Source: a virus
IMG/VR virus record: IMGVR_UViG_3300027906_002394
Location: 1-64,000 of that record
Length of the DNA stretch: 64,000 nt
Reading direction: 5' to 3' (one strand)
Part shown: positions 1-37,162 of the stretch, in pieces
Layout of the letters: each line of letters begins with the position of its first letter
How positions within the stretch are numbered: position 1 is the first letter of the stretch
Translations under genes and position numbers: made by a program
The notes under the pieces: generated by a model
What the model was told of the DNA's origin: nothing
The model's input: the letters and a program-made list of their open reading frames with translations, nothing else
Databases searched by the model: none

Positions 1-366
1 AAATATGTTGCCCAGTTGCTCTATGGTAACAGCGGTGCTGGTGCGGTGGATAATGCCGTTACACTTCTTATTTTATTACTAGTGTTTGTATTTGACCCAT
101 TGGCGATTGTGTTGGTACTTGCTGCTAACCTTAGTTGGAAGGAAAGACAAGGAGAACTCATAACACCAATGACAGTTGATGAAACAGTAGTTGAAGAGCA
201 GATTATACCAGAAGAGGAACCAAAGGGAATGCCTACCGATGATTTACCAGAGATGGAAGATTGGGTTAGGGATAAGTATGGTACTAGTTCTGGAATGGAG
301 AACCTTTCCGATACCGATAAAAAGAAATTGGAATGGTTAATTGATAAGAAAAAATCACAGGAGTAA
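1..366 (+). CDS. C-terminal end of a membrane-anchored phage protein (partial)
   Basis: The reading frame is open to the left window edge, so only the last 121 or so residues are visible. They hold one strong membrane segment (about visible residues 17-43, ending DPLAIVLVLAAN), then an acidic, Glu/Pro-rich soluble tail ending in a Lys-rich stretch. The DPLA..LAAN segment resembles the C-terminal anchor of large transmembrane proteins I associate with T4-like marine phages; this is recollection and not a search result. The stop codon lies one base before the GTG of the next gene, so the two are probably co-transcribed. Function unknown. Confidence 0.7.
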   Translation, partial: KYVAQLLYGNSGAGAVDNAVTLLILLLVFVFDPLAIVLVLAANLSWKERQGELITPMTVDETVVEEQIIPEEEPKGMPTDDLPEMEDWVRDKYGTSSGMENLSDTDKKKLEWLIDKKKSQE

Positions 367-367
367 A

Positions 368-1957
368 GTGAAAAATATAGTAATGATTGCATTGGCGATG
401 TTAAGTTTCGGCGCCATTGCAGATGATGTAGAAGAAACTATAGTAGTAGGTGCTAAAGTATATAATGGATATGCTGACCCACTATATGACGATAACCTTT
501 TAGAGAGTATACAGTACACTAAAAAGTTTATTGCTGGTGGTCTAGGTGGATTTCATGGTATACAATTAAACGGTACTGATACAAAACATACCGCAGTATA
601 TAAAAACGGTGTACCTGTCAATGACCCCAGTTCTGGGTGGTACGATTTTGGTACAGACTTACCAGCACATCAAGACATAACTGTTATATCTGGGCCGAAT
701 AGTGCCAGATTTGGTAGTGGTTCTATGGCTGGTGTCGTATTGATTGAGGATAATTTTGAAAGACAGTTCACGGCGGAAGTTGCTGAAGATATCACAAAAG
801 TAATTGCCAGTTATGAATGGTATCCAGAGTCACAGGAAGTTGGTGTACAAGTTGCCCACTACAATGGTACTACTGGTTCTGCCATGACATATAATGATGA
901 GTTGGATTGGTATAAAAACACCACAGTAAAGTTTGCTTACGCGAATGAGGTAGGTAAGATAAATCTGGAGAGTATCAATTATGATTCTGATTATGACCAA
1001 TGCTGGTGGATGATGCCACCTAATGAGTGGGAAGATTGGATGTGTCATGTTGAGGGTGAGAAAAATACCGCAACGCTGAGGACTAAATATCTGGTTCTAG
1101 GACATACCACAAATAAGGCAAAACATAATACTGGATATGAGATAGAGTCAGAAAGGACTTATGGTAACTTTATCGCATATAAGGATAATGGCCATGAGTT
1201 AGGAGTGACAGCGCAGAATGAGGTTTATAATGAAAAAAGTAGAGACACTTATTCTGCCTATTACCAATGGCAAAATGATTTCATTGGGGTTGGGTACAGA
1301 TTTCAAGAAGGTACTGCTCCCATGTCAGAACAACATATTGCTAGAATTGGTATAGAGTGGGATGGTTTAAGATTCTCACTTGCTAATAGTTATAGACTGC
1401 CTAATTTATATGAGCAGAGAGGTGATGGATGGGTACACGCGAATCCAGACCTACAACCAGAAGAAGGTATTGGCACAGAATTTGGATACAAGGATGTGTC
1501 CATTTACTACTATGAATTTGATGAAGGTATAGATTTTGACTTCAACCAGTACAAATATGTAAATACTGGGGAATATTCTTCACAAGGAATTCGCTATCAA
1601 GACCAATTTTTGCTTGACAATGGGTCTATTTTCGTGTATACTGAGTACACAGAAACAGATAGGATTAGAGTACCTAGATATAGGACTAAATTGAGTTATT
1701 GGACATCTGGTTCATTTGGTGGTATTCAATGGGATACCGCTTTAGAATATCTAGGTGAATTTGAGAAAGGACAGGATTATGATGGAAGAATTATTGATGA
1801 TGTTAGCACCGCTAATTTTAAGTTTGGTGTATATGCTACATCAAATTTGTATATCATGTTAGAGTTAGATGATATTATGAATAATAGATTTGAGGTGTTA
1901 CCCGATTATGCTGCTGGTGGAAGAACAGTACGACTCAGTTTCGACAGAATTTTATAA
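368..1957 (+). CDS. TonB-dependent outer-membrane receptor (BtuB-like)
   Basis: 529 residues. I chose GTG at 368 because CAGGAG lies 6-8 bases upstream and translation then begins with a clean signal peptide (residues 1-18, cut after FGAIA). A TonB-box-like EETIVVGA follows at residues 22-29. Then comes a plug domain with the typical G-P-x-S-A-R-F-G-S-G and A-G-V-V-x-I-E elements (about 30-135), and a barrel of alternating aromatic strands with the TBDT-like YRLPNLYEQ and NPDLQPEE motifs. The last strand ends LSFDRIL. At 529 residues it is short for a TBDT but close to small BtuB-type receptors. It would sit in the host outer membrane and import a siderophore, cobamide or similar ligand via TonB, or mask or replace the host receptor. 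Substrate cannot be read from sequence. Confidence 0.85.
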   Translation: MKNIVMIALAMLSFGAIADDVEETIVVGAKVYNGYADPLYDDNLLESIQYTKKFIAGGLGGFHGIQLNGTDTKHTAVYKNGVPVNDPSSGWYDFGTDLPAHQDITVISGPNSARFGSGSMAGVVLIEDNFERQFTAEVAEDITKVIASYEWYPESQEVGVQVAHYNGTTGSAMTYNDELDWYKNTTVKFAYANEVGKINLESINYDSDYDQCWWMMPPNEWEDWMCHVEGEKNTATLRTKYLVLGHTTNKAKHNTGYEIESERTYGNFIAYKDNGHELGVTAQNEVYNEKSRDTYSAYYQWQNDFIGVGYRFQEGTAPMSEQHIARIGIEWDGLRFSLANSYRLPNLYEQRGDGWVHANPDLQPEEGIGTEFGYKDVSIYYYEFDEGIDFDFNQYKYVNTGEYSSQGIRYQDQFLLDNGSIFVYTEYTETDRIRVPRYRTKLSYWTSGSFGGIQWDTALEYLGEFEKGQDYDGRIIDDVSTANFKFGVYATSNLYIMLELDDIMNNRFEVLPDYAAGGRTVRLSFDRIL

Positions 1958-10285: not shown

Positions 10286-10386
10286 GAGTTGGGTTCATAT
10301 GGGGGTATCTGGTAGGTATCTCTAGTGGGCGCAGACAGGTGTTTAGTTCTGTACTTGAACTGTGGAAGGAAAAAAGTGGGAAATAG
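10261..10386 (+). CDS. Tiny membrane protein
   Basis: 41 residues, ATG at 10261 with AGGGGGGAAAAA upstream. Residues 4-21 (YAIAIGVGFIWGYLVGIS) form a single membrane span with small-residue GxxxG-like packing, followed by a soluble tail rich in charged residues. It has a good ribosome binding site for its size. Function unknown. Confidence 0.5.
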   Translation: MFEYAIAIGVGFIWGYLVGISSGRRQVFSSVLELWKEKSGK

Positions 10387-10552
10387 TGGTAATCTAAATC
10401 CGCGTGAGAGCAGGAGTGAGCGCCGCTGCCCGACAGAAAAATCAGACACCGCTGCCGCTAGAAAGCGGGATTTAAAGAGATCATACCACAAAGCGGCACA
10501 CATGTCAAGCACTTTCCGCCAGTATGGGGCGCTCTGGTCAGATTGGTTATGA
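10376..10552 (+). CDS. Possible small Arg-rich protein (GTG start)
   Basis: 58 residues if GTG at 10376, preceded by AAGGA, is used. The product is Arg/Ser-rich (ESRSERRCPTEKSDTAAARK) with a WSDW ending. Base composition is more G+C-rich than neighbouring genes, so the stretch could instead be non-coding RNA. The start overlaps the upstream stop, which mildly supports translation. Confidence 0.35.
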   Translation: MGNSGNLNPRESRSERRCPTEKSDTAAARKRDLKRSYHKAAHMSSTFRQYGALWSDWL

Positions 10553-10594
10553 GGGCCGCTGGGATACCGAATCGAAAATAAACGAAAATAATGC

Positions 10595-10623
10595 TTGACA
10601 ACTGCTGATCTATTGTGTATAAT
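10595..10623 (+). promoter_or_regulatory. Sigma70-type promoter P3 (TTGACA-17-TATAAT)
   Basis: TTGACA at 10595-10600, 17 bp, TATAAT at 10618-10623: a full consensus match. GATC occurs inside the spacer at 10607. It drives a short leader with no clear gene before P4, so its transcript may run into the non-coding RNA downstream. Confidence 0.85.
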
Positions 10624-10645
10624 AGGGTGTCCCCTTTAAGAAGAG

Positions 10646-10691
10646 ATATGGCTGATCGATCTATAGGCGCTACAATCCATATATGGCTGAT
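10646..10691 (+). repeat. Direct repeat ATATGGCTGAT in P3 leader
   Basis: ATATGGCTGAT occurs at 10646-10656 and again at 10681-10691, 35 bp apart. The first copy contains an ATG at 10648 (preceded by AAGAAGAG) that could encode a 19-residue leader peptide. A small hairpin CCCTT-GATATAT-AAGGG follows at about 10734. The arrangement resembles an attenuator leader, but no function can be shown. Confidence 0.5.
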
Positions 10692-10768
10692 AGGGTGCAT
10701 GAATTAACAGATGGCCACAGAGCGTGTAAGCCCTTGATATATAAGGGATTAATAATTAAAGAAAACAC

Positions 10769-10797
10769 TTGACAACTGGTCTCATATGTGAGATCAT
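10769..10797 (+). promoter_or_regulatory. Promoter P4 with GATCAT -10 box, for the non-coding RNA
   Basis: TTGACA at 10769-10774, exactly 17 bp, then GATCAT at 10792-10797. The spacer contains the inverted repeat TCTCA-TATG-TGAGA (10781-10794) that runs into the -10 box, a plausible operator. Transcription would begin near 10804, at the 5' end of the structured RNA. Confidence 0.75.
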
Positions 10798-10803
10798 TAT
10801 ACC

Positions 10804-11252
10804 ATACTGAGAGATGAGGAGATTATATAGTGTTGTGACAATAGTTTAAACCCCAGTTAAACCGCACCATCTCACCTGTGTTGAGGTTCAGAAAGAGTGC
10901 TATCGGGGTCGGACATGGACACAGGGGCCGATGCGAAAGGTGGCATATAGACCACGCTCCGCAAAGGTTAAGGCAGGGGGGACGCAGCCCCATCAAAAGG
11001 CGGAGAGACAACTAAAGGAGAGTCCAGTAGCGAAATTGCAAGCCGGCAAAGATGCGTGAATGGACAGGGCGGATGTCAAAGGGTGAGACCCGGCCGCCAA
11101 CAGGGTTGTGCCTCAATACACACGCGCTCCCCCACGGTTAGGGGAGCATCTTAGATCACGGAGGTGGGGCGGCCTATGCTTTGGGATCAGGAGTGACGCC
11201 CTTGCAAGTGCATCTGGCATCCCCCCATATACTAATTGATTTTATTTTTTTT
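10804..11252 (+). ncRNA. Large structured non-coding RNA, family unknown (RNA-1)
   Basis: A stretch of about 450 bases with no credible reading frame, markedly more G+C-rich than the surrounding genes, starting just after promoter P4 and ending in a T-rich run (11240-11252). Complementary segments are dense: GTTTAA 10844-49 with TTAAAC 10857-62; CCTGTGT 10875-81 with ACACAGG 10919-25; CTCCGC 10957-62 with GCGGAG 11000-05, enclosing GGGG/CCCC; GTCCA 11022-26 with TGGAC 11061-65; GCCGG 11042-46 with CCGGC 11090-94, which crosses the last as a pseudoknot; GGGT-GAG-ACCC 11081-91; GCTCCCC 11126-32 with GGGGAGC 11141-47; GTGGGG 11164-69 with CCCCAT 11223-28. I could not match it to RNase P, tmRNA, 6S or group I introns. 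Confidence 0.8.
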
Positions 11253-11301
11253 CTGAGTAGAGAAAATCGCCCAGAGAATTTTACGCCCCAGAGGTTTTAT
11301 T

Positions 11302-11739
11302 ATGGCAGATATAATATTTGATGTAGATGGCACTCTTATGGATATAGAACATAGGAGGCATTTCGTCACACAGCGTCCCAAGGATTTTGATTCGTTTCGG
11401 GAACATACTAAATTCGATACAAGAAAAGAGGATATCTTTGCCATTGCGGATGCGTTACAGGCACAGGGTCATCGTATTCTTATATCTACAGGACGAATGA
11501 AGAAAGAACATGATATCACCGTTAAACAGATACGAGATGGCGGTATAGACTTTGAACGCATATATATGAGAAGCGATACAGATTATCGTCCCGATGATGA
11601 ACTTAAAGAAGGTTACTTAGAGAAGATGCGTAGAGATGGTTATACACCTACTATGGCATTTGACGATAGACAGCGTGTTGTTGATATGTTTCGTTCTAAA
11701 GGATTAACAGTATTCCAAGTGGCAGAAGGTGATTTCTAG
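11302..11739 (+). CDS. HAD-type phosphatase (polynucleotide-kinase phosphatase-like)
   Basis: 145 residues, ATG at 11302 with AGAGG upstream. HAD motif I is IIFDVDGTLMD (residues 4-14), motif II is ILISTGR (about 59-65), and motif IV is AFDDRQRVVDMF (about 118-129). The arrangement without a large cap, with KEGYLEKMRRDG before motif IV, resembles the 3'-phosphatase domain of T4 polynucleotide kinase. A role in RNA/DNA end repair or nucleotide dephosphorylation is plausible; the kinase half is absent. It lies immediately after RNA-1. Confidence 0.75.
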   Translation: MADIIFDVDGTLMDIEHRRHFVTQRPKDFDSFREHTKFDTRKEDIFAIADALQAQGHRILISTGRMKKEHDITVKQIRDGGIDFERIYMRSDTDYRPDDELKEGYLEKMRRDGYTPTMAFDDRQRVVDMFRSKGLTVFQVAEGDF

Positions 11740-13146: not shown

Positions 13147-13197
13147 ATTATTTTGCTATTTCGTTATATATCAAGGGCTTACAGAGGCAGCTTTTTC

Positions 13198-24764: not shown

Positions 24765-25344
24765 ACATGAAACAGTAGCACGATGGTTTAATTATGTTAG
24801 AGAAAAATCGAACCCTCGATTCACGGAATGCTTTTGGGATACACAGTTAAAATCCAAGGCAGAAATCATAGACAACCTACCACAAGACGAACACGGAAAC
24901 TATTTTGTTTTCGGTGGGTGGTTTGGTGTCCTCGCACATTTACTTGATGACAATATAATATCGAATGAAATCTATAGTGTGGATATTGACCCACAATGTA
25001 AAGAAGTTGGTGACATATATTTTCTTAGAGAAAATATCACTTATGTAACAGCAGATATGTGTGGTTATCAGTATTCTAAGAACCCACATGTTGTTATTAA
25101 TACCAGTACTGAACATTTACACCAGTACAAGTATGATGAATGGTGGAATGGTATTCCAGAAGGTACATTTTATGTTGTACAAGGAAATGACCTTAAAATA
25201 CCAGAACATGTTCGTACATTTTCCTCTTTAGAGTATTTTAAAGAGTGGAACAGATGTACTAAGATTACTTATGAGTCAGGCATGGAATTGCCAGGCCCAA
25301 ACAATTCCACTTACACTAGATACACGGTTATGGGATACAAATAA
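24754..25344 (+). CDS. SAM-methyltransferase-like protein
   Basis: 196 residues. The motif FVFGGWFGVLAHLLDDNI, then YSVDIDPQCKEVG, then YVTADMCGYQYSKNPHVVI gives a Rossmann-type motif I with an acidic strand-2 end (VDIDP) and a motif III-like Asp, as in class I methyltransferases. It begins 11 bases before the preceding stop, and its own stop abuts the next ATG. The substrate is unknown; the neighbours suggest a sugar or lipid intermediate. Confidence 0.5.
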   Translation: MNIEHETVARWFNYVREKSNPRFTECFWDTQLKSKAEIIDNLPQDEHGNYFVFGGWFGVLAHLLDDNIISNEIYSVDIDPQCKEVGDIYFLRENITYVTADMCGYQYSKNPHVVINTSTEHLHQYKYDEWWNGIPEGTFYVVQGNDLKIPEHVRTFSSLEYFKEWNRCTKITYESGMELPGPNNSTYTRYTVMGYK

Positions 25345-26096
25345 TGAATGTAGCAATTATTGGTTATGGGTTTTGTGGTAAAGCAACCGAGAGAATTCTA
25401 AAAAAGGTTGCCGGAATAAAAAGAATTCAAATTCAAGACCCCAAGTATAATAAAAAAATATCTCCAGATGAGTGGGATATGATTAGGTATGCTTTTGTAT
25501 GTGTGCCTACCCCCTTAACCAAAAACATGAGTATTATGGATCATTGGTATGAAGGTGATTTGTTTGATATGTCCATTATAGAAGAAGCAATATCTACTAT
25601 ACCGAACAATGTAATAACAGTTATTCGTAGTACCATTGGCCCAGAATCTATAAAGAAAAATTGGGTTCATTGGCCAGAGTTCTTGCGAGAAAGTCATTGG
25701 GAAGAAGACGCGGATGATAAGTCTATCCCTATTATTATTGGTGATGGAAACCAAGAGATGTCAGATTGGTTCCCAGACCGACATACAATTTTTACTACTG
25801 CTAAAACAGCAGCGATGTATAAGTTGTCTAGGAACGCGATGTTAGCTGCTAAAGTAACTCTCGCCAACTACATTCAGAGAGTTTGTCAAGAGTATGATAC
25901 CGATTATATTGATGTAGCACAGTTGTTAAAGGAACACGCGAATCTTGGAACCTCTCATTGGGAGGTGCCAGGCCCAGATGGTGATTATGGGTTTGGTGGT
26001 TCTTGTTTTCCCAAAGATACAACCCATCTTGCTTCGCTAACAGGTGGACACAATATATTTGATTATGTTTTGAGGTGTAATGAACGAGATCGCTAA
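25344..26096 (+). CDS. Truncated nucleotide-sugar dehydrogenase (UDP-Glc/GDP-Man family)
   Basis: 250 residues. N-terminal NAD site MNVAIIGYGFCGKATE, VCVPTPLTKN, STIGP, then the mid-domain, and the active-site loop GFGGSCFPKDTTHLASL, whose Cys is the catalytic thiol of UDP-glucose and GDP-mannose dehydrogenases. The family is normally about 400-450 residues with a C-terminal nucleotide-sugar domain, which is missing here, so this is an NAD and central domain only. A longer relative lies at 39886. It may oxidise an unusual sugar substrate or need a partner. Confidence 0.75.
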   Translation: MNVAIIGYGFCGKATERILKKVAGIKRIQIQDPKYNKKISPDEWDMIRYAFVCVPTPLTKNMSIMDHWYEGDLFDMSIIEEAISTIPNNVITVIRSTIGPESIKKNWVHWPEFLRESHWEEDADDKSIPIIIGDGNQEMSDWFPDRHTIFTTAKTAAMYKLSRNAMLAAKVTLANYIQRVCQEYDTDYIDVAQLLKEHANLGTSHWEVPGPDGDYGFGGSCFPKDTTHLASLTGGHNIFDYVLRCNERDR

Positions 26097-27357
26097 ATAC
26101 TTAGACGATATAACCAGAAGAAACAATGCAATAGGTAAAGGTTTCTGTGTATTGAAGTGGTGGCACTTAGAAATGCACTTAGGTACAGGTAACTATCATT
26201 CCTGTTTTCATTGTCCCCAACAAAATCTTAAACTTGATGAAGATATGCACAACACTCTTCACAAGATGCAACAAAGAAAGACCATGTTAGAAGGTGGTAG
26301 ACCAGATGAGTGTTCTTATTGTTGGAAGGCGGAAGATAGTGGCGCTGTAAGTCCTAGAACAACATTGTCTTCCATATACACTCACATGGAAGAGGATATT
26401 ATAGAAACAACTGCTAAATTGGATTGGGATGATTATGTATATCCAAAATATTTGGAAATGAGTTTTTCTAATACATGTCAAATGAAATGTTCTTATTGCG
26501 CTCCCTCTTTGAGTTCTACCTTATTACAGGAAATCAAAAAGGAAGGGGCATACCCATTATCAGACCCAGAGAATCGCGGTCAATACGAATTAAATGGTAC
26601 TGAAGAACTTTATAAGGATGATGATAACCCTCTTCTGGATAAGTTCTGGGATTGGTTTGATGAAGCGAGAAAACATCTTGATACATTGAGAATTACAGGC
26701 GGAGAACCTTTATTACACAAGAGTACTTTCGAGATGATGGATAGATTGCGTGGGGAGAGTATTAACTTCCATGTAAACAGCAATCTATCAGTTTCTAATA
26801 GAAGAGTGACAGAAGCATGTAACTTATTACCAGCGAAGTCTAAGATATATGCTAGTGTTGATACATTTGGACAACAGGCTGAGTGGATTAGACATGGACT
26901 TAATTGGGACTTGTTTGACCAAAATGTTCTTACTGTTATTAATCATAAAATCCCATTGAGTTTTATGACAACATTTTGTTTATTAAGTATACCAAGATTT
27001 AAAGACTTTTTGTATTATGTTATACAGTTAAAAGATATTGGGGATGTTTTGATTGATACACCATTTATGACTAATCCCCCACACCTGTCTTGTCTTATAA
27101 TGGATGATGATATGAGGGAAACATTAGAAGATAGTTACCAGTTTATGTCATATAATAAAGAATTCAATCACGCGGAAGTTGTAAAGTTTGAAAGATTACT
27201 TAAATGGGTAGATGCAAATAGGTTTACTGGAGAACGCCTAAATAGTCATAGAAAAGATTTTAAAACATTTGTCGATGAACATGACAAACGCAGAGGCACG
27301 GATTGGCACAAAGCGTTTCCAGAGTTGACATATTTTTATGAGTTATGTGATGTCTAA
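26080..27357 (+). CDS. Radical SAM protein 1 of 7 (twitch/SPASM-like)
   Basis: 425 residues, 17-base overlap with the upstream gene. The radical SAM motif is CQMKCSYC (Cys 133, 137, 140) in LEMSFSNTCQMKCSYCAP, followed by RITGGEPLL (the GGEP strand). An N-terminal cysteine set (23, 42, 45, 78, 81, including DECSYCWKAED) probably holds an auxiliary cluster. The C-terminus ends RRGTDWHKAFPELTYF. It would cleave SAM to a 5'-deoxyadenosyl radical. The substrate is unknown. It belongs to group A (with radical SAM 2 and 3), sharing a C-x-x-C-W motif. Confidence 0.85.
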   Translation: MNEIAKYLDDITRRNNAIGKGFCVLKWWHLEMHLGTGNYHSCFHCPQQNLKLDEDMHNTLHKMQQRKTMLEGGRPDECSYCWKAEDSGAVSPRTTLSSIYTHMEEDIIETTAKLDWDDYVYPKYLEMSFSNTCQMKCSYCAPSLSSTLLQEIKKEGAYPLSDPENRGQYELNGTEELYKDDDNPLLDKFWDWFDEARKHLDTLRITGGEPLLHKSTFEMMDRLRGESINFHVNSNLSVSNRRVTEACNLLPAKSKIYASVDTFGQQAEWIRHGLNWDLFDQNVLTVINHKIPLSFMTTFCLLSIPRFKDFLYYVIQLKDIGDVLIDTPFMTNPPHLSCLIMDDDMRETLEDSYQFMSYNKEFNHAEVVKFERLLKWVDANRFTGERLNSHRKDFKTFVDEHDKRRGTDWHKAFPELTYFYELCDV

Positions 27358-28732
27358 ACCTAATGAATTCTGGATTGAACAACTAAAACAGAAAAGAGAA
27401 AAGATTAATCAAATTAGTCCTTCTTTTTGTTCTGCTAAGTGGTTACAGACTACTCTGTATTTGCAGAATGGTTATAATCACTCATGTCACCATCCTTCAC
27501 CACATAAAATACCTGTGGAAGAAGTATTAGAGAATCCAGCAGCTCTTCATAATAGTAAGTATAAGAAACAACAAAGAATTAAGATGCTCAATGGTGAGAG
27601 ACCTAGTGAGTGTGATTACTGTTGGAGAATAGAAGACCAAGGTAAGGGACACTTCTCTGACCGTCATTATAAGACTGCTGATTGGTGGTCATGGGATAAG
27701 GTTGATGTTATTGCAACCGACAACCCAAGTAAAGATGTGTATCCAACATATCTAGAAGTATCGTTCTCAAACGCATGTAATTTCGCGTGTGCTTATTGTT
27801 CACCAGAGATAAGTTCTGAGTGGATGAAAGATATAGAAAAGAATGGTGACTATCCTGTGGAGTTTGGTTCTGGTAATTTAGACTATTTAAAGTCTGTGGA
27901 AAAGTTTCCATATAAACACTCTGACCCGAACCCATATGTTGATGCATTTTGGAAATGGTTTCCAGAAGCACTTCCTCATCTAAGAGTATTTCGTATTACT
28001 GGTGGTGAACCCACTATGAGTAAAGATGTGTGGAAAGTAATAGATTACATATATGATAATGCACAACCAGAACTGTCTATTGCAATTAATAGTAATCTTG
28101 GTACAGACCCAAGACTTATACAGAGACTTGTTGACGCATGTAACAAATTAAAAGACAAAGTTAAACAAATTGAGATATATACAAGCTGTGAAGCAACTGG
28201 AGAACAAGCAGAATATATTAGAGATGGATTAGACTATGATTACTGGCGTGGTAATGTAGAGAAGGTTTTATCAGAGACAGATGCTAATGTAGCAATGATG
28301 ACTACATTAAACATATTGAGTATGACTACATTTGAGAACTTCATTGAAGACATAATGCAGTTAAGAATCAAATATAATAAAGATTTAGCAAATAACAGAA
28401 TACCGTTAAGTATAAACTATTTAAGATTCCCGCCTCATTTACAATGTACTCTATTGGATAGAAATACTAGAATATCCTATGCATCTGACTATGAGTTAAC
28501 CGCGAAGATTTGGTTGAAATATAATTCACCAGACAAGTTCGCAAGAATTTATTTGGAAGAGTATGACCAGATACAGAGGTTCTGCGAATACCTTAGGCAA
28601 GAACATAAAGGTGCTGAAAAATATAGAGCAGACTTTGTAAATTATATAAAAGCCTACGATATCAGAAGGTCGAAAAACTTTAGCAAAACTTTTCCAGAAT
28701 ATAAACATTTATTGGAGTGGTGGGATGCCTAA
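27350..28732 (+). CDS. Radical SAM protein 2 of 7
   Basis: About 460 residues (ATG 27350; 27338 is an alternative). The cluster-binding motif is CNFACAYC (Cys 143, 147, 150) after LEVSFSNA. N-terminal CHHPSPHKIP at 46-55 and ECDYCWRIED at 88-97 are shared with radical SAM 3 and, in part, 1. FRITGGEPTMS is the GGEP strand. It ends RRSKNFSKTFPEYKHLLEWW. Paralogy with its neighbours is clear, yet the sequences are too different for a recent duplication. Overlaps the small gene that follows by 8 bases. Confidence 0.85.
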   Translation: MSKPNEFWIEQLKQKREKINQISPSFCSAKWLQTTLYLQNGYNHSCHHPSPHKIPVEEVLENPAALHNSKYKKQQRIKMLNGERPSECDYCWRIEDQGKGHFSDRHYKTADWWSWDKVDVIATDNPSKDVYPTYLEVSFSNACNFACAYCSPEISSEWMKDIEKNGDYPVEFGSGNLDYLKSVEKFPYKHSDPNPYVDAFWKWFPEALPHLRVFRITGGEPTMSKDVWKVIDYIYDNAQPELSIAINSNLGTDPRLIQRLVDACNKLKDKVKQIEIYTSCEATGEQAEYIRDGLDYDYWRGNVEKVLSETDANVAMMTTLNILSMTTFENFIEDIMQLRIKYNKDLANNRIPLSINYLRFPPHLQCTLLDRNTRISYASDYELTAKIWLKYNSPDKFARIYLEEYDQIQRFCEYLRQEHKGAEKYRADFVNYIKAYDIRRSKNFSKTFPEYKHLLEWWDA

Positions 28733-28952
28733 AAAATATATTCATGTAAACATGCACAAGATTCGTGCTAATAAAAAACACGGAACAAACGAACCTGTTC
28801 TTACAGTAAAAGAAGGAAGAAAAAATACCTATGGACATAGTGTAAAGATACATGGCCCTAGTGAGGTAATATACGGTGGGAATGATAAACCATTGTTACC
28901 CTGTGGTGCGAGAGTTGTTATAATGACAGAAGCGGAGATTGAAATTGAATAA
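28725..28952 (+). CDS. Small conserved phage protein (HVNMHKIRANKKHG)
   Basis: 75 residues between radical SAM 2 and 3. The sequence is basic at the start (IHVNMHKIRANKKHGTNEPV) and strand-rich later (KIHGPSEVIYGGNDKPLLPC). I recall very similar small proteins in cyanophages, away from radical SAM genes, so it is probably not a dedicated peptide substrate, although its position invites that idea. Function unknown. Confidence 0.6.
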   Translation: MPKKYIHVNMHKIRANKKHGTNEPVLTVKEGRKNTYGHSVKIHGPSEVIYGGNDKPLLPCGARVVIMTEAEIEIE

Positions 28953-30447
28953 AGAATATGACTTGATAAAGTATCGTAAAGATATTCTTGATACTAAGTC
29001 AAAGAGTTTTTGTGGTGCGAAGTGGTACAACGCTACTACATGGTTAGGTAGTGGTACTACTGCTAGTTGTCATCACCCCCCAGCACATAAGATTCCGTTA
29101 CACGAGATTGCAGCTGACCCATCCGCTATTCATAACACACAACACAAGAAGGCAATGCGTAAGATGATGCAACGCGGAGAGAGACCGCGTGAGTGTGAGT
29201 ATTGTTGGAAAGTTGAAGATATGAAAGATGAAGCTGTTAGTGACAGAGTTTTTAAATCAATCATATACACCAATGAAGATTTGAAGAAGGCACACGAGGC
29301 AGACTTTAACGATAACACATTATTAAAAACATTCGAGATTGCATTTGACCGAACATGTAACCTTGCTTGTTCTTATTGTAACTCTAGTTTCTCTACCACA
29401 TGGGCTAAGGATATAAAGAAACATGGCCCATATCAAAATATGGTATCAGATGGTGCAGCTGCCTTTCAACACGATGGTGCGTGGGCAGACCCATATGGTA
29501 AAAAGGAAGAGAACCCATATGTGACTGCTTTCTGGGATTGGTGGGAAGATGGACTATCAGAAAGTCTTGAGGAATTGAGAGTTACAGGTGGTGAACCGTT
29601 GATGTCTGACCAAGTATGGAAGTTGTTTGATTGGTTTGAAGATAATCCATCTGATATGAGATTCGCAGTAAACTCTAACCTTATTGCGAAGAAAAGTATC
29701 GTTGATAGACTAATAGAAAAATCAAAAGGTGTTAAGAAGTTTCATCTTTATACTAGTTGTGAAGCAACAGGTAAACAAGCTGAGTATATAAGGGACGGAC
29801 TTGACTATGAACTCTGGACTAACAATATAACGCGATTCATTAAAGAAGGTAACTATGAAGGCATCAATATAATGATGACTATTAATAGTTTATGTTTGTT
29901 TAGTATAACAGACTTCTTAGATGATGTATTTAAACTAAAAGAATTAACAAAAAGTAAGACACCTGTCTTTAGTGTTAACTTATTACGATTCCCTAGTTTC
30001 CAAAGTCCTCTTGCACTACCAGACCACATTAAAGACTATCTTAGAGAGAATCTATCTAGTTGGTATGAAGAAAATAAAGACAGACCATATTGGCATGACT
30101 TTGAAAAAGCAAGTGTTGAAAGGTTAATAGATTATCTGGTTATTGTTGATGCACCACATAGAAGAACAAGTGACAAGATGACCCTGTGGAGAGACTTCAA
30201 GACCTTTTATGGTCAATATGATAAACGAAGAGATAAAAGCATTTCTGTATTCCCAGAGATTCTTACAGATTGGATAGACACTCTTCCAGATACAGAAACA
30301 AAACCTATAACAGTTATGCCAAGTGGGGATAGTACAGAACAGTACGCGGATGACCCAGACTTGAAGAAGATTGCAGATGAAGAAGGATGGGTATTGAAAC
30401 CAGACAATAAAAACATAGATGAAGCATTGGGGGATTACGACAAATGA
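28945..30447 (+). CDS. Radical SAM protein 3 of 7
   Basis: About 500 residues. TTG at 28945 follows GGAG by 8 bases; TTG 28939 is possible, and no ATG fits. Cluster motif CNLACSYC (138, 142, 145) follows FEIAFDRT. N-terminal CHHPPAHKIP and ECEYCWKVED match radical SAM 2 closely. LRVTGGEPLMS is the GGEP strand. After the core the family tail RRDKSISVFPEILTDW ends near residue 440, and about 60 further acidic residues are unique to this copy. No other start signal is present, which is unusual for this operon. Confidence 0.82.
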   Translation: MNKEYDLIKYRKDILDTKSKSFCGAKWYNATTWLGSGTTASCHHPPAHKIPLHEIAADPSAIHNTQHKKAMRKMMQRGERPRECEYCWKVEDMKDEAVSDRVFKSIIYTNEDLKKAHEADFNDNTLLKTFEIAFDRTCNLACSYCNSSFSTTWAKDIKKHGPYQNMVSDGAAAFQHDGAWADPYGKKEENPYVTAFWDWWEDGLSESLEELRVTGGEPLMSDQVWKLFDWFEDNPSDMRFAVNSNLIAKKSIVDRLIEKSKGVKKFHLYTSCEATGKQAEYIRDGLDYELWTNNITRFIKEGNYEGINIMMTINSLCLFSITDFLDDVFKLKELTKSKTPVFSVNLLRFPSFQSPLALPDHIKDYLRENLSSWYEENKDRPYWHDFEKASVERLIDYLVIVDAPHRRTSDKMTLWRDFKTFYGQYDKRRDKSISVFPEILTDWIDTLPDTETKPITVMPSGDSTEQYADDPDLKKIADEEGWVLKPDNKNIDEALGDYDK

Positions 30448-30881
30448 AAATATTGATATGTGGATTGCCTGGCTCTGGGAAAACTACTCTTGGAAGAGAG
30501 TTGTCATATTATTTTGATATCCCTCTTATAAACGCAGATGTCCAAAGAGAATTTTATGATAATTGGGATTTCTCTGAGACAGGTAGAATGATACAAGCTT
30601 TCCGTATGTCAAAATATGATTTCGGGATATTAGATTTTATTGCACCAATTGAACATTATAGAAAGTTGGTTGCAGCTGATTGTACTATTTTTATGAACAC
30701 GATAGATGAAGGTAGATACGAAGACACAAACAAAATATTTGAACCCCCACTATCGTGTGATTTTGAGGTAAAAGAATGGATAGAACTAAACCAACTACGC
30801 AGCTCCTTGGAAGGTTTCAACCGTGGCATAGAGGGCATACGGAGTTATTTAAAAGAGCAATTTCCAAAACTGGTCAAGTAA
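30444..30881 (+). CDS. APS-kinase-like P-loop kinase (N-terminal half of a split bifunctional enzyme)
   Basis: 145 residues. Walker A is ICGLPGSGKTTLGREL (residues 4-19), followed by PLINADVQREFYDNWDFS, where APS kinases have their D-x-x-R region, and IFMNTIDEGRYEDTNKIF, a lid-like segment. I recall marine phage proteins in which this kinase is fused to a following nucleotidyltransferase. Here the last 35 residues overlap the start of that domain in another frame, so they are probably not part of the kinase fold. It would phosphorylate a small molecule. Confidence 0.65.
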   Translation: MKILICGLPGSGKTTLGRELSYYFDIPLINADVQREFYDNWDFSETGRMIQAFRMSKYDFGILDFIAPIEHYRKLVAADCTIFMNTIDEGRYEDTNKIFEPPLSCDFEVKEWIELNQLRSSLEGFNRGIEGIRSYLKEQFPKLVK

Positions 30882-31126
30882 TAATACAGTTAAGGGAAAC
30901 GCCTTATGATGAGGACAACCCATATAGCCTACAAGAAAGACGGAGTATGATTTCAATTGCACTTAATCAATCTGGATTTGAGTATGGTGTACATTATGAA
31001 ATTATGGGAGTACCTAATGTAACGCATATTACTTATGGTAGAGATGTTGGATATAAAATTGAAAAGGAGTTATTGTTAGAGAATATAGAAGATATTTCTG
31101 CTACAAAAATTCGTAATGAAGAATAG
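30776..31126 (+). CDS. Nucleotidyltransferase, HxGH type (C-terminal half of the split enzyme)
   Basis: 116 residues. The cytidylyltransferase/NMN adenylyltransferase signature is GRFQPWHRGHTELFKRAI (residues 12-29), with a terminal ISATKIR matching the second nucleotide-binding motif. The core GVPNVTHITYGRDVGYKIE is typical of the marine phage version. It overlaps the kinase gene by 106 bases in the -1 relative frame. It activates a small phosphorylated compound with a nucleotide, so kinase plus transferase could build an activated head group or sugar. The start GAATGG has no strong Shine-Dalgarno, consistent with coupling. Confidence 0.7.
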   Translation: MDRTKPTTQLLGRFQPWHRGHTELFKRAISKTGQVIIQLRETPYDEDNPYSLQERRSMISIALNQSGFEYGVHYEIMGVPNVTHITYGRDVGYKIEKELLLENIEDISATKIRNEE

Positions 31127-32417
31127 ACCTTACCTTTGCACCGCGCCATGGACGCATACTTATGTTTCCCCTCAAGGAGAGAGGAGACTGTGTTGTGCTA
31201 GCAGAGAAGAGGCAACATTTCAAAAACAGTATTTAGATAGTGGGACATCGGAAGGTAAATTTGAACCACAGTCTTTAGAAGAACATTGGAATAGTGATTA
31301 TATGAAAGACATTCGTAAAAGAATGTTATCTGGTGAAAAACTGAAACAATGTCAAGTATGCAATGACCAAGTTTTAAACCTACATACATATCGTCAATAT
31401 TTTACAGAGACATTGTTCCCCCACAAAATAGAAGACATTATAGCGACTACGCGAGAAGATGGACATTATGATAAGATGCCAGTCTCGTATGATTATCGTA
31501 TTTCAAATCTATGTAACTTTAAATGTCGGATGTGTGGGGAACAATTGTCTTCAAGCTGGGAGGCAGAGAAGAAAAAACATAATCTCATCAATGTTAAAGA
31601 AGACCCTTGGATGGAACCTACTACTAGAAAGAAGATATCCAATTTCCAAGAGGAAGTGTTAGAAGAGGAATTACAAAAGGCAGTTGATAATAAAACCATA
31701 GAGGAAATATATTGGGTTGGTGGTGAACCTTTGATGTGGGAAAGACATTGGACTATTATGCAACAATTAGTAGACAATGGACACGCGAAGAATGTTACTA
31801 TTCGTTATAATACAAATTTAAGTAGAGTCAAATATAAGGATTATGACTTATGGGAGATGTTACCCCATTTTAAGAATGTTAATATATGTGCCAGTATTGA
31901 TGGTGCGTATGATGTAGGGGAATATATCAGAGATGGACTAGTATGGAGTGAGTGGATAGAAAATTTCAAGTCTGGTATGTTTTTGATAGACCAGTTTGGT
32001 GATGATGCGATGGTCTTTGATGTAACATTAACTACGCCAGGCTTATTTCATCTTGATAAATTGTTTAATGTTGTTAAATCATTAGATGTAAAGTCATACT
32101 TTAAATTTACCTATGCATTTGACCCTAGTGTTGTTATGTCTCCGTTTTGTTTACCTAAAGATGTGCTTTTACCAAAAGTTGACGCATTATTATCACATAT
32201 TGAACCACAACTTACATGGAAGACAAAAGTTTATAAAGATTCTCTGGTTAACCTAATAAATAGAGAGTCATTTGATGAACAATGGCCTGACACTTATAAA
32301 GATGGTTTGAAACGCGGAAAGTCATTTCAAGAATTCCTTGATAATATAAGAAACAGCAAAATGAAGTTTGTAGACACACTTCAAGGTAATGCTGTGGATT
32401 GGTGGGGTAGAATATGA
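31116..32417 (+). CDS. Radical SAM protein 4 of 7
   Basis: 433 residues. Cluster motif CNFKCRMC (133, 137, 140) in RISNLCNFKCRMCGEQ. N-terminal CTAPWTHTYVSPQGERRLCC (8-27) is the group B signature, a C-x3-W-x-H followed by CC. CQVC at 79-82 is the second element. YWVGGEPLM is the GGEP strand. Unlike the other copies it lacks the C-terminal TFPE tail and ends with AVDWWGRI. It overlaps the nucleotidyltransferase by 11 bases. Confidence 0.85.
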   Translation: MKNRPYLCTAPWTHTYVSPQGERRLCCASREEATFQKQYLDSGTSEGKFEPQSLEEHWNSDYMKDIRKRMLSGEKLKQCQVCNDQVLNLHTYRQYFTETLFPHKIEDIIATTREDGHYDKMPVSYDYRISNLCNFKCRMCGEQLSSSWEAEKKKHNLINVKEDPWMEPTTRKKISNFQEEVLEEELQKAVDNKTIEEIYWVGGEPLMWERHWTIMQQLVDNGHAKNVTIRYNTNLSRVKYKDYDLWEMLPHFKNVNICASIDGAYDVGEYIRDGLVWSEWIENFKSGMFLIDQFGDDAMVFDVTLTTPGLFHLDKLFNVVKSLDVKSYFKFTYAFDPSVVMSPFCLPKDVLLPKVDALLSHIEPQLTWKTKVYKDSLVNLINRESFDEQWPDTYKDGLKRGKSFQEFLDNIRNSKMKFVDTLQGNAVDWWGRI

Positions 32418-33646
32418 GTAATACTTTCTGTCCATTACCTTGGAATCATTTAGCAACACATCCACATGGTATGTGTACTCTTTGTTGCGAATCAGAACAG
32501 ACATTGAATAAGTCAGCTGCGAAGAATGACAATGAGTTAGTAACATTACGAAACACTAACTATGAACTTAGTGAAATAACCAATAGTGAAAGTTTCAGTA
32601 AGGTTAGACTACAAATGCTCAATGGCGAAAAACCAACCGAATGTAAAAAGTGTTGGGAAGCGGAAAGTGTTGGCAATAGAAGTAAGAGATATTATGAGTC
32701 ACGCAAACTTCCTATGACTTTGGAAGACGCCAAAAAAATTACGAATGATGATGGAACCTTAAAGGAGGTTAAATATGAGTTCGTGGAACTACGCCTTGGT
32801 AATCATTGTAATGTTATGTGCCGTACTTGCAACCCTTACTCCTCTTCTCGTTGGGTAAAGGAATGGGATGTTATATATCCAGAAGAACCTGTTATAAAGG
32901 ATTACATATCTCAGTATAACATTAACTGGCCATTGGAACAAGATTTCTGGGACAGTCTAATAAATTATTGTGATAATTTGAAGGTGTTATATATTAACGG
33001 TGGTGAACCTTTTCTTATAGACAAACATTTTGCCTTTTTGGAAACTTTGGTTCAAAGAGGAACTTCCAAAGACATTGAAATTGTATATTCTACTAACTGT
33101 ACAATTATTAACCACACATATGAAGACATATGGAAAGAATTTAAATCTGTACAGTTTATGTTATCTATTGATGATATAGGTGAAAGGAACGAGTACATAA
33201 GAACCTATACCAAGTGGCCTAAGGTCTTAGACTTTATTGATTGGATGGATGATATAACTGATAACAATGAAAACTTGAATTATAATATATTACAAACAGT
33301 ATCTACATATAATGTCTATTATCTTCCAGAGTTTTATGACTACTTTGCAGGCAAAGATATAAGTCATAACTTTGTTAAAGACCCTGCTCACTTTGACCCA
33401 TTGATACTACCCCAGACAGTACAGAAAGCTATATTGGAGAGGACTAAAGGTTATCTTTGGCCTCCAGATTTACAACGAGGTTATAATGACCTAAAAAATT
33501 ATTTTAATATAGAAGGCATCTCTTATACTGACCTAGACTCTATGAAAGTTTTCTTTGAGAAGACACGCGCTATGGATGTAACTAGGAAAGATAATTTTGA
33601 AATAACCTTCCCAGAATTTTATGAGTTGATTAAAGATTATGAGTGA
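32414..33646 (+). CDS. Radical SAM protein 5 of 7
   Basis: 410 residues. Cluster motif CNVMCRTC (132, 136, 139) in LRLGNHCNVMCRTCNP. N-terminal CPLPWNHLATHPHGMCTLCC (6-25) and ECKKCWEAES (77-86) define group B. INGGEPFLID is the GGEP strand. The C-terminus is TRKDNFEITFPEFYELIKDY, the family tail. Overlaps radical SAM 4 by 4 bases and radical SAM 6 by 8 bases. Confidence 0.85.
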   Translation: MSNTFCPLPWNHLATHPHGMCTLCCESEQTLNKSAAKNDNELVTLRNTNYELSEITNSESFSKVRLQMLNGEKPTECKKCWEAESVGNRSKRYYESRKLPMTLEDAKKITNDDGTLKEVKYEFVELRLGNHCNVMCRTCNPYSSSRWVKEWDVIYPEEPVIKDYISQYNINWPLEQDFWDSLINYCDNLKVLYINGGEPFLIDKHFAFLETLVQRGTSKDIEIVYSTNCTIINHTYEDIWKEFKSVQFMLSIDDIGERNEYIRTYTKWPKVLDFIDWMDDITDNNENLNYNILQTVSTYNVYYLPEFYDYFAGKDISHNFVKDPAHFDPLILPQTVQKAILERTKGYLWPPDLQRGYNDLKNYFNIEGISYTDLDSMKVFFEKTRAMDVTRKDNFEITFPEFYELIKDYE

Positions 33647-34874
33647 TAAGAAGAATCTTTGTATGTTACCGTGGGTACATTTACACACATGGCCGAATGG
33701 TAATGTGTATCCCTGTTGTATTACACCCATGAAATATATTGCTGGTAATCTAAACAACGAAAGTTTAGAAGATGTCTATAATAGTGACTTGATAAAAGAT
33801 ATCCGTTTGAAGATGTTAAAAGAAGAAAGACATGATGCGTGTGCTAGATGTTATCTACAAGAGGATGCTGGTGGCCACTCTATGAGACATAGGGCAAATA
33901 AGAGTTGGAAACATTATGAGAATTTGATTGAGACAACACAAGATGATGGTACAGTAGAAGAAATGAAACTTCCATATTGGGACTTTAGGTTTTCTAACAT
34001 ATGTAACTTCAAATGCCGTAGTTGTGGCCCTCAGTTGAGTACTGGTTGGTATCCAGATATAAAGAAGATTGCTGTATTAGAAACTGGTGAATCGTTTTTA
34101 CCAGACGATGTTCCAAAAGGTAATACATTTGATTTGTGGGAACAGATAGAACCGCATTTTGAATCAGTAGAAGAAATATATTTCGCTGGTGGTGAACCTC
34201 TTATAATGGAAGAACATTATCGCATATTAAAGAGACTTGATGAGATGGGCAAACATGATGTACTCATTAGATATAACACAAACTTTAGTGAGATGCGATA
34301 TAAAGATTTACATGTATTGGAGTTCTGGCCAAGGTTCAAGAATATAGAGATTGGTGCTAGTATAGATGGTATGAAGGAACAGGGTGAATTCATTCGTAGT
34401 GGTTTTAGTTGGCAACAATTCATCGACAATAGAGAGAAGATGAAAGAGACTTGTCCACACGCGAACTTCTATGTTAACTGTACAATTAGTATACAGAACT
34501 CTTATCACATAGTACCCTTCCATCTTATGTTAGTTGAACTGGGGTTGATAGATGACTATGATGCCTTTAATGTTAATATCGTAACTGAACCGCCTCATCT
34601 TGATGTTAGGATATTACCAGAGAACCATAAAGAAGCTTTATCGAAACTATATGACCTTCATATTGATTATATGTCAAAAAATAGTAAGTGGGTTGCTAAA
34701 CAAGGATTTGAAAGTTTAAAGAATCATTTGCTTACTAAGGATAGAGTATTAGAGGATAATAGGAAAGGATATCTTGCTAGATTTGAATATAAGATGAGAC
34801 AGTTGGATGATATAAGGAACGAGGACTTCCAGAAAACATTCCCAGAACTAGAGGATTTATATAATGCCATTTAA
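33639..34874 (+). CDS. Radical SAM protein 6 of 7
   Basis: 411 residues. Cluster motif CNFKCRSC (122, 126, 129) in FRFSNICNFKCRSCGPQ. N-terminal CMLPWVHLHTWPNGNVYPCC (8-27) and CARCYLQEDAGGHSMR (68-83) belong to group B. YFAGGEPLIMEEH is the GGEP strand. Ends IRNEDFQKTFPELEDLYN. Similar to radical SAM 4 in the ASIDG-x-x-x-x-GE-x-IR segment. Confidence 0.85.
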   Translation: MSDKKNLCMLPWVHLHTWPNGNVYPCCITPMKYIAGNLNNESLEDVYNSDLIKDIRLKMLKEERHDACARCYLQEDAGGHSMRHRANKSWKHYENLIETTQDDGTVEEMKLPYWDFRFSNICNFKCRSCGPQLSTGWYPDIKKIAVLETGESFLPDDVPKGNTFDLWEQIEPHFESVEEIYFAGGEPLIMEEHYRILKRLDEMGKHDVLIRYNTNFSEMRYKDLHVLEFWPRFKNIEIGASIDGMKEQGEFIRSGFSWQQFIDNREKMKETCPHANFYVNCTISIQNSYHIVPFHLMLVELGLIDDYDAFNVNIVTEPPHLDVRILPENHKEALSKLYDLHIDYMSKNSKWVAKQGFESLKNHLLTKDRVLEDNRKGYLARFEYKMRQLDDIRNEDFQKTFPELEDLYNAI

Positions 34875-35988
34875 AGAAAAAGATAGACCCAGAGATGATG
34901 ATTATTTCTTTGCGGAGGATTATGCTGGTGTTAATGAATGTAAGGACGCTATAATAACTCTAAGACTACGCAATAGTAGAGATGATAGTATTGAACCTAT
35001 GGAACTGAATATATCATTAGATGATAATCACGCGGTAGACATTTGGTATCAGAGATTTAAACACGAACTAGAAACCAAAGCTTTCCTAAGAAAAGAACAT
35101 GTCTTTATGGGAGAGAGCACCCTTACTACAGAAGACATGATAGAAAAAGTTAATAATACATTAGACCATATATCCAAGTTTGATTTTGTTGCTGAACAAT
35201 GGACAAGGTGGCCAGACTATGTTAAGGCAGACCAAAGAAATGTTCTTGACCAACCTCTTAGAAATAATCCAGATATATCAGAAAGGTTGAGTATAGAAGA
35301 TTTTAAGGATGGTAATGATAATAAGAAGATGAATGTTATCCATAACTATTTTCCTATGTTGTCTGGCCCAGCAGAAAGAACTACTGCACATTTATATGTT
35401 GCTTCCCCAGATGTCCAAGCAAGTATATGTCGTTTGAACTTAGAAGTTCACGAACTTCATACTACATTGCAGAATGATGAACAGGCAGACTTCAACATGC
35501 ATATTAATGTGTCATGGCAAAGAGCTCCAAAAAAGTTACCAGAACTACCAGATTGTTTTAATGACTTGTTTACAAAATATGCTAAATTCGGTGATGTCTT
35601 ACTTGGGTATCCTCAGATTGGAAAGACACATATAGAAGCATACGCGGAAGACGATGAAGAATTAGAAGATGAACATGTAGAACCAATTAAGTTTTTATCT
35701 GGAGACATGTTAATTAAATTTGCTACAGACCAACATGAGAGTTGGGTAAAGGGGTTTGATGAGTGGTTAGTTGAACAGGGACTAGACCCAGAAGATAAAA
35801 AAGGTAGATATGGATTTGCTAAATTAGGTAGGGTTGTTGATGCTGATTTGGAGTTTGTAGAAAATAATATTTCTGGTAAGTATGATGATATAGATAGAAT
35901 TTCTGTTGATGGTAAACATTATTATTATGACTACAGTAGGTTTGATGATGACTATGAGGAAAGATTTTTAGGATATTTACATGACTGA
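34864..35988 (+). CDS. Protein of unknown function inside the radical SAM array
   Basis: 374 residues with no radical SAM motif and only two cysteines. It is acidic, with an N-terminal FKEKDRPRDDDYFFAEDYAG, a central YFPMLSGPAERTTAHLYVAS (about 157-176), a strand-rich middle, and DYEERFLGYLHD at the end. It overlaps radical SAM 6 by 11 bases and radical SAM 7 by 8 bases, so it is translated with them. I do not recognise it. It could be a partner or carrier for the array, a role suggested only by position. Confidence 0.65.
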   Translation: MPFKEKDRPRDDDYFFAEDYAGVNECKDAIITLRLRNSRDDSIEPMELNISLDDNHAVDIWYQRFKHELETKAFLRKEHVFMGESTLTTEDMIEKVNNTLDHISKFDFVAEQWTRWPDYVKADQRNVLDQPLRNNPDISERLSIEDFKDGNDNKKMNVIHNYFPMLSGPAERTTAHLYVASPDVQASICRLNLEVHELHTTLQNDEQADFNMHINVSWQRAPKKLPELPDCFNDLFTKYAKFGDVLLGYPQIGKTHIEAYAEDDEELEDEHVEPIKFLSGDMLIKFATDQHESWVKGFDEWLVEQGLDPEDKKGRYGFAKLGRVVDADLEFVENNISGKYDDIDRISVDGKHYYYDYSRFDDDYEERFLGYLHD

Positions 35989-37162
35989 TAAACTGTGCGT
36001 ATTACCTTGGGTTCATACAGAGTTCACTACAGATGGAACTGCTAACCCTTGTTGTCTTTATACAGGCGCACCAATGGGAAATCTAAAACAAGATAATTTT
36101 CTTGATGTATGGAACGGAGACACTTATCAAAATTTGAGAAAGGAATTTCTTAATGGCGGACAACCAAAAGGATGTTCTATGTGTTGGGAAGGAGAGGATG
36201 CTGGTTATCAGTCAAAACGATTACAGGATAATAAGAGATTTGAAAAACAACTAGAAGAAATAAAGAAAAATAAAAACTATATTGCTACTGATACACCGAA
36301 ATATCTTGATTTGAAATTTGGTACATTATGTAACTTAAAGTGCCGTACTTGTGGTAGTATTAATAGTTCAAAATGGCAGACAGATGAAAAGAAATTGTAT
36401 GGAAGAATACTAAACAAAAAAGACCCATTGTGGATTGATAAAAATCCTAATATATGGGATGAGTTGTTTGAAATTATGCCTCTGGTAGAACAGATGGACT
36501 TCACAGGTGGTGAACCCTTTATGATAGACCAACACTTTGAATTGTTACGAAAAGTTGTTGAATCTGGTCACGCGGAACACATATCATTACATTATAACAC
36601 AAATGGGTCAATCCGTCCAGATGAAACTATATTTAATATGTGGCAAGAGTTCAAGTCTTGTGAAGTGATGTTTAGTATTGACGGAATATTCAAGAAATTT
36701 GAATATATGAGACACCCAGCTAAATGGGATGAAGTGTGGGGTAATTATAATTACTTTAAGTCACATGATTGGATGCATATACAAGTATGTCATACAGTCA
36801 GTCTTTATAATGTATATTACCTAGATGAGTTTATAGACCTGTTTGGTAGAGACAATATATACCTAAATCTTTTGCATTTCCCTAAACAATATTGTATTAG
36901 GAATATGCCAGATGCATGTAAAAAACAGGTTGAAGAAAAACTTATAAATATTCCAGATGTGAATGATATCATATCCTTCATGAATCAAGAAGCACAATAT
37001 GACAAGCTTGACCTTGGGTTTTTGCCTGTTACAGAAAGATTAGATGGAATAAGAAATGAAAGTTATAGTGAAACCTTTTCGGAATTTTATAGGATATTAA
37101 TAGATGGCGGAATCGGACGAGAACCTTGGAACCCTAAGCAGTACTTTGGAAAGATTAGTTAG
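35981..37162 (+). CDS. Radical SAM protein 7 of 7
   Basis: 393 residues. Cluster motif CNLKCRTC (117, 121, 124) in LKFGTLCNLKCRTCGSI. N-terminal CVLPWVHTEFTTDGTANPCC (6-25) and GCSMCWEGED (64-73) are group B. FTGGEPFMIDQH is the GGEP strand. The tail IRNESYSETFSEFYRIL resembles that of radical SAM 5 and 6. Its last 59 bases overlap the N-terminus of the following large gene, the longest overlap between array neighbours. Confidence 0.85.
   Translation: MTDKLCVLPWVHTEFTTDGTANPCCLYTGAPMGNLKQDNFLDVWNGDTYQNLRKEFLNGGQPKGCSMCWEGEDAGYQSKRLQDNKRFEKQLEEIKKNKNYIATDTPKYLDLKFGTLCNLKCRTCGSINSSKWQTDEKKLYGRILNKKDPLWIDKNPNIWDELFEIMPLVEQMDFTGGEPFMIDQHFELLRKVVESGHAEHISLHYNTNGSIRPDETIFNMWQEFKSCEVMFSIDGIFKKFEYMRHPAKWDEVWGNYNYFKSHDWMHIQVCHTVSLYNVYYLDEFIDLFGRDNIYLNLLHFPKQYCIRNMPDACKKQVEEKLINIPDVNDIISFMNQEAQYDKLDLGFLPVTERLDGIRNESYSETFSEFYRILIDGGIGREPWNPKQYFGKIS

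What the first reader, a model, noticed from the sequence alone, without database searches (positions are those of the whole stretch)
10769..11252. Orphan 450-base structured RNA with its own promoter
The DNA is abruptly G+C-rich compared with the genes, lacks reading frames, starts right at promoter P4 and ends in a T-rich run. It contains at least eight complementary segments, two of them crossing (GTCCA/TGGAC with GCCGG/CCGGC), and a 7-bp perfect hairpin. Size and complexity recall large phage RNAs such as GOLLD or ROOL, but I could not match any. Adjacent to a phosphatase with a polynucleotide-kinase-like fold.
Basis: partly seen in the sequence, partly recalled or inferred. Interest (0 to 1): 0.85.

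Follow-up and report, generated by a model that had tools for sequence, protein, structure and literature searches.

The report
New structured RNA in marine phages
A marine T4-like phage carries a roughly 440-base folded RNA that matches no catalogued family; its tail end is a two-hairpin RNA motif that recurs in front of genes in at least seven further related ocean phage lineages, so it is probably a real, undescribed control element.

Summary
In detail: window ~10804-11236 is the most G+C-rich stretch of the window, non-coding, behind a promoter, and a real structured RNA. The evidence is comparative, not energetic: single-sequence folding is no better than shuffles, but four syntenic homologues show compensatory changes in the tested helices (8 of 24 pairs, 0/500 shuffles; 7 covarying stems against 0 in a parallel-strand control). 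Rfam finds nothing. The RNA is composite. The 5' two-thirds (10811-11098) were found only in G000-G003. The 3' third starts with a ~46-nt motif (11103-11149): hairpin with loop CCNNAAUA, CG linker, hairpin with loop ACGGUUA. A model built only from three other phage contigs finds it in the window at E=5e-11 and in eight more records. All 11 pairs covary. Elsewhere the motif sits before gp33, a small gene or an IscU-like gene, in four records just behind a phage tmRNA. I rank a cis-acting leader/boundary element of the downstream early operon (HAD phosphatase here) slightly above a free-standing trans RNA. GOLLD/ROOL membership is not supported; the GCCGG/CCGGC crossing pair is not conserved; the T-run is not a recognisable terminator.

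The parts
10769..10797 (+). Promoter (TTGACA-17-GATCAT, TG before -10) with a palindrome TGGTCTCATATGTGAGATCA overlapping spacer and -10
   Evidence: palindrome in the RNAalifold table (columns 16-35)
10595..10623 (+). Upstream consensus promoter P1 (12/12), leader of about 130 nt before the second promoter
10804..11236 (+). Predicted RNA body: transcript start inferred about 7 nt after the -10; sequence conservation ends near CCCCCCATAT
   Evidence: start site inferred, not measured
10811..10873 (+). Helix GAGATG(10811-16)/CATCTC(10868-73), invariant; beside an SD-like GAGGAGAT followed by a two-codon open frame (GTG TTG TGA; ATG GCA TGA in L006)
10875..10925 (+). Helix CCTGTGTT/GACACAGG, three pairs with compensatory changes (L007 CCGTGGTT/AATCACGG)
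10926..10969 (+). Helix GGCC-GA-TGCG / CGCA-AA-GGTT enclosing hairpin GTGG/CCAC; three pairs with compensatory changes
10976..10991 (+). Hairpin GGGG/CCCC (GGCA/TGCC in L007), two compensatory pairs
11012..11021 (+). Conserved segment TAAAGGAGAG, unpaired in the hand model; AAAGGAG is in all four RNAs and is the Shine-Dalgarno complement of 16S rRNA, with no start codon behind it
   Evidence: presence in all four; anti-SD complementarity from general knowledge
11022..11065 (+). Helix GTCC/GGAC (GCCC/GGGC in L006) with a variable insert that shrinks to a 4-nt loop in L006
11069..11098 (+). Hairpin GCGG..GGG/CCC..CCGC (GCAG../CTGC with AGT/ACT in L006)
   Evidence: hand-corrected alignment
11103..11149 (+). 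Two-hairpin motif shared with other marine T4-like phages: TGTG-CCTCAATA-CACA, CGC, GCTCCCC-CACGGTTA-GGGGAGC
11170..11223 (+). Third 3' hairpin GCC-U-ATGC-TTTG / CAAG-x-GCAT-CT-GGC, invariant in five genomes
11302..11739 (+). HAD phosphatase, PNKP phosphatase-domain type; no + strand promoter-like site between the RNA and this gene

Best explanation
Shown: 10804-11236 encodes a conserved structured RNA made of a genus-specific 5' domain and a 3' domain that begins with a two-hairpin motif found in other marine T4-like phages. Inferred: the early operon is transcribed by host RNA polymerase from the promoter at 10769 (and 10595), and the RNA is made as the first 450 nt of a transcript that runs on into the HAD phosphatase and the small genes behind it. 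The two-hairpin motif, whose loops (CC of the first, GG of the second) can kiss, then works in cis as a leader/boundary element that sets expression of what follows (processing, termination or access to the ribosome), as its position in front of gp33, an IscU-like gene and a small gene in other phages suggests. The 5' domain is an additional module that this genus has put in front of the motif and that relative G004 lacks, having a protein gene in its place.
For: Motif upstream of a same-strand gene in every lineage examined: gp33 directly or within the operon in Melnitz, G059, G077, G082, G083, G084, G088, G092 and G093; a small MSxKNPFE gene in G036, G059, G062; an IscU-like ORF in G092; HAD in G000-G004. 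All 11 motif pairs covary, 38 cells changed on both sides, 0/500 shuffles, slid controls 3-5 pairs. G004 keeps motif and HAD while the 5' two-thirds are replaced by a 142-aa ORF. No promoter between RNA and HAD and no + strand terminator at the RNA end; the next strong + strand promoter is at 13198.
Against: The 5' domain has its own covarying helices, more than a simple leader needs. In the window the motif ends 152 nt before the start codon with another hairpin and a T-run between, against roughly 20-100 nt elsewhere. Closest HAD relatives outside the genus (L009, L011, 77% and 58%) have no such RNA. No transcript data.
Confidence: 0.45

Rival explanations
1. Free-standing trans-acting phage RNA: an early ~440-nt non-coding RNA ending near the T-rich run, acting on host machinery; the 3' motif is a domain shared with other phage RNAs.
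For: Own promoter with an operator-like palindrome; covarying helices in the 5' part; conservation stops near 11236, before the gene; in G036 and G082 the motif also abuts a stable RNA, the tmRNA.
Against: No recognisable terminator; the motif elsewhere lies in front of genes; the 5' domain is absent in G004 while the motif stays.
Confidence: 0.35
2. Ribosome- or 30S-binding decoy: the SD-like stretches (GAGGAGAT at the 5' end, AAAGGAG in a junction, neither leading a real gene) capture initiating ribosomes, helping host translation shut-off.
For: AAAGGAG present in all four RNAs; two-codon start-stop frame kept with changed codons in L006; GOLLD, another large phage RNA, is bound by ribosomes in pull-downs (PMC12286853).
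Against: A 7-nt purine match is weak evidence: the window has 8 copies on the + strand and 2 on the - strand; the 5' SD lies beside an invariant helix that may mask it.
Confidence: 0.12
3. Chance folding or a decayed gene without an RNA function.
For: Single-sequence folding energy equals shuffles (z -0.22); only a few distinct homologues of the 5' domain.
Against: Compensatory changes beyond shuffled, slid and parallel-strand controls.
Confidence: 0.03

Closest known systems
GOLLD and ROOL large phage RNAs (Rfam)
   Same: Large structured phage RNA of unknown function with several helices; GOLLD also has a more conserved 3' part (PMC12286853).
   Different: No Rfam match; ~440 nt against more than 800 nt for many GOLLD and 659 nt for a studied ROOL; no tRNA genes in the window.
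Glutamine riboswitch and permuted tmRNA of pelagi-/methylophages (Melnitz, PMC9004378)
   Same: Same phage group; the new motif lies 3' of them in Melnitz and G084, and the window phage also has a permuted tmRNA at 47.3 kb.
   Different: The motif lies outside both Rfam matches and matches no Rfam family; in the window genus it lies 36 kb from the tmRNA.
Purine riboswitch architecture (from general knowledge)
   Same: In the gp33 group the motif can be drawn as a three-way junction (closing stem GGGUG/CACCC, two hairpins) with CC/GG complementary loops.
   Different: Different sequence, no Rfam match, closing stem missing in several members including the window; ligand binding is untested.
Phage put-type antiterminator RNAs (HK022; from general knowledge)
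   Same: Two adjacent hairpins early in a phage transcript.
   Different: No sequence relation tested; not tied to a known terminator here.

Membership tests
GOLLD / ROOL / OLE | Match to the Rfam covariance model | tested here: not met
   No gathering-score match in the window; nothing but two unrelated weak matches at E up to 10 for 10350-11320
GOLLD / ROOL | Often near tRNA islands (PMC12286853) | tested here: not met
   ARAGORN finds no tRNA in 64 kb, only a tmRNA
GOLLD / ROOL / OLE | RNA-only oligomer or nanocage | not testable with these tools
   needs cryo-EM
tmRNA | tRNA-like domain and tag reading frame | tested here: not met
   Rfam and ARAGORN find the phage tmRNA only at 47.3 kb, not here
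Two-hairpin motif of marine T4-like phages (this work, unnamed) | Score of the 46-nt model R2 built without the window's sequence | tested here: met
   window 11103-11149, 39.2 bits, E 4.6e-11
Two-hairpin motif of marine T4-like phages (this work, unnamed) | Hairpin A of 4 bp with loop [C/A]CNNAAUA and hairpin B with ACGGUUA-type loop | tested here: met
   hairpin A 4/4 pairs in 13 of 13 rows; window loops CCTCAATA and CACGGTTA
Two-hairpin motif of marine T4-like phages (this work, unnamed) | Closing stem GGGU(G)/(C)ACCC seen in the gp33 group (not universal in the motif family) | tested here: not met
   present in Melnitz, G082, G083, G084, G088, G093 and, as CATCC, G077; no adjacent partner in the window, G036, G059, G062, G092
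Riboswitch (any) | Ligand binding and a switch in expression | not testable with these tools
   no match to Rfam riboswitch families at the motif
Intrinsic terminator at 11240-11252 | G+C-rich stem directly before the U-run | tested here: not met
   no + strand site called there

The most novel reading that the evidence does not exclude
The two-hairpin motif is an undescribed riboswitch or protein-responsive leader class of marine T4-like phages that times gp33 (late-transcription coactivator) and tmRNA-linked operons, and in this genus it has been combined with a second RNA domain into a large composite regulatory RNA.
Probability: 0.2. Interest if true: 0.85.

Novelty: new variant of a known kind. 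Interest (0 to 1): 0.62.

Why it matters
If right, a widespread group of ocean phages carries an uncatalogued, strongly covarying RNA element next to the gene for the late-transcription coactivator and, in one genus, a larger RNA built on it. The motif is in the cultured phage Melnitz (MZ577097 46562-46607), so transcription, processing and any ligand or protein partner can be tested directly.

Tried and rejected
Rfam at gathering and permissive thresholds: nothing at the RNA. blastn against phage records: chance hits only. DNA pattern hits L024, L029-L036, L124-L128 were read and rejected as chance. R2 match at L129:11061-11106 (E 0.004) lies inside a 2365-aa ORF, rejected. Cyanophages P-HM2, S-T4, P-TIM40, ACG-2014h, S-WAM2 and Sf-CH1b, and Pelagibacter phage HTVC008M, gave no convincing motif (P-HM2 and S-T4 weak, E 0.008 and 0.06); nor did the gp33 regions of Mosig, AG-345-F15, AG-345-L05, P-SSM2, S-CAM3 and HTVC008M. 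A second tmRNA, an intron or RNase P RNA: no Rfam match. The 5'-domain model R3 found only G000-G003. Searching bacterial genomes with R2 was not possible; the one genome-contig scan, with a 5'-domain pattern, gave chance hits.

Full report
Observation. The stretch 10769-11252 was read on both strands. It is the most G+C-rich stretch of the window (57% against 37%), has no reading frame beyond chance, follows a -35/extended -10 promoter at 10769-10797, and ends at a T-rich run without a terminator stem. Its folding energy is ordinary (z -0.22), so the claim of structure had to be tested by comparison.

Homologues. The window lies in an 82,960-base virus record. The gene content and the closest named relatives of its gp32-like protein (54.6% to Methylophilales phage Melnitz, 53.1% to Pelagibacter phage HTVC008M) place it among marine T4-like phages. 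Searching the neighbouring HAD phosphatase gave four relatives with the same gene order: G001 (L005), G002 (L006), G003 (L007) and G004 (L008). G001-G003 have the whole RNA; G004 has only the 3' third, the rest being replaced by a 142-aa ORF. Pattern scans of the viral collection aimed at the 5', middle and 3' parts found no further copies.

Structure of the 5' part. On a fixed hand-made structure over 10866-10997, 99% of cells pair and 8 of 24 pairs carry changes on both sides, never reached in 500 shuffles; sliding the partners gives 0 or 1. An unbiased list of stems conserved in all four sequences holds 7 with compensatory changes, 4 of them with two or more, against none among parallel-strand 'stems' of the same alignment. 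RNAalifold energy of the corrected alignment is -101.2 against -82.7 (sd 5.4) for 60 column shuffles that keep gap pattern and variability, none as low. The main helices are CCTGTGTT/GACACAGG, GGCC-TGCG/CGCA-GGTT, GGGG/CCCC, GTCC/GGAC and GCGG/CCGC; L006 trims two of them by whole arms while keeping the pairing. The sample is small: G000 and G001 are nearly identical, so this rests on about three independent sequences.

The 3' motif. A covariance model of 11103-11236 (R1) matched two phage contigs outside the genus: G036 and the cultured phage Melnitz. A third turned up by a pattern drawn from them (G059). A 46-nt model built from those three only (R2) found the window's RNA at E=4.6e-11 and further members G062, G077, G082, G083, G084, G088, G092, G093. 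Over 13 distinct sequences every one of the 11 pairs has changes on both sides (38 cells; shuffled mean 10.1, none of 500 as high). Hairpin A reads GATG/CATC, GACG/CGTC, GGCG/CGCC, AGTG/CACT, TGTG/CACA or CACT/AGTG around the loop CCNNAATA (ACCTAATA in G004 and G062); hairpin B has 5-9 pairs around a loop ACGGTTA in most members, with variants ACGGTAA (G093), ATGGTAA (G084) and ATGGTTA (G092), and a deviant loop in G077. The alignment was fitted to the model structure, which leans in its favour, but the free pairing search gives the same helices. CC of loop A and GG of loop B could kiss in all but G077; this is inference. In seven members a closing stem GGGU(G)/(C)ACCC (CATCC in G077) makes a three-way junction; the window lacks it.

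Context of the motif. In Melnitz, G036, G082 and G084 it follows a permuted tmRNA, within 7-15 nt of the Rfam match in G036 and G082 and behind a glutamine riboswitch and a mini-ORF in Melnitz and G084. Downstream lie gp33, the late-transcription coactivator (Melnitz, G082, G083, G084, G088, G093 and G077), a small gene (G036, G059 with gp33 next, G062) or an IscU-like ORF with gp33 next (G092; IscU identity read by eye). In the window genus it lies before the HAD phosphatase, 36 kb from the phage's tmRNA; the window's gp33 (49.3 kb) has none.

Mechanism. Shown: conserved structure, modular composition, position. Inferred: transcription from 10769 by host polymerase, read-through into the HAD operon, and a cis role for the motif. 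The absence of a promoter between RNA and HAD, the absence of a terminator stem and the placement of the motif before genes in the other phages favour cis; the covarying 5' domain and the end of conservation before the gene keep a trans RNA open.

Known or new. Neither the RNA nor the motif matches any of 4227 Rfam families. The Melnitz paper reports the tmRNA and glutamine riboswitch but holds neither 'noncoding RNA' nor 'ncRNA' as a term. A short literature search found no description of the motif; subscription journals were not covered.

Noticed in passing
window 10508-10350 (- strand): A conserved leftward promoter (TTGACA-17-TATGAT, 11/12) drives a putative ~100-nt antisense or small RNA; mean column identity over promoter and body is 88% in five genomes.
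   Followed up: partly
window 10640-10700: The P1 leader carries a short ORF behind an SD that is MAAAK* in G002-G004 but longer and different in G000/G001.
   Followed up: no
window 10725-10744 and 13164-13183: 20-nt inverted repeat TGTAAGCCCTTGATATATAA, the second copy just before the next early promoter (13198); Melnitz has TGATATATAAGGG just behind its motif.
   Followed up: no
L008:5315-5743: 142-aa ORF of unknown function that replaces the 5' RNA domain in G004; its one relative among phage records is in Phage C48C1 (47%).
   Followed up: partly
window 10780-10799: Palindrome TGGTCTCATATGTGAGATCA within the RNA promoter, kept in G000-G003 and lost in G004: possible operator.
   Followed up: no
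window 25344-37162: A run of several ORFs with CxxxCxxC-like motifs, radical-SAM-like by eye, next to a dehydrogenase-like ORF in this phage.
   Followed up: no
window 341-1957: 538-aa ORF that looks like a TonB-dependent outer-membrane receptor by eye, unusual in a phage.
   Followed up: no
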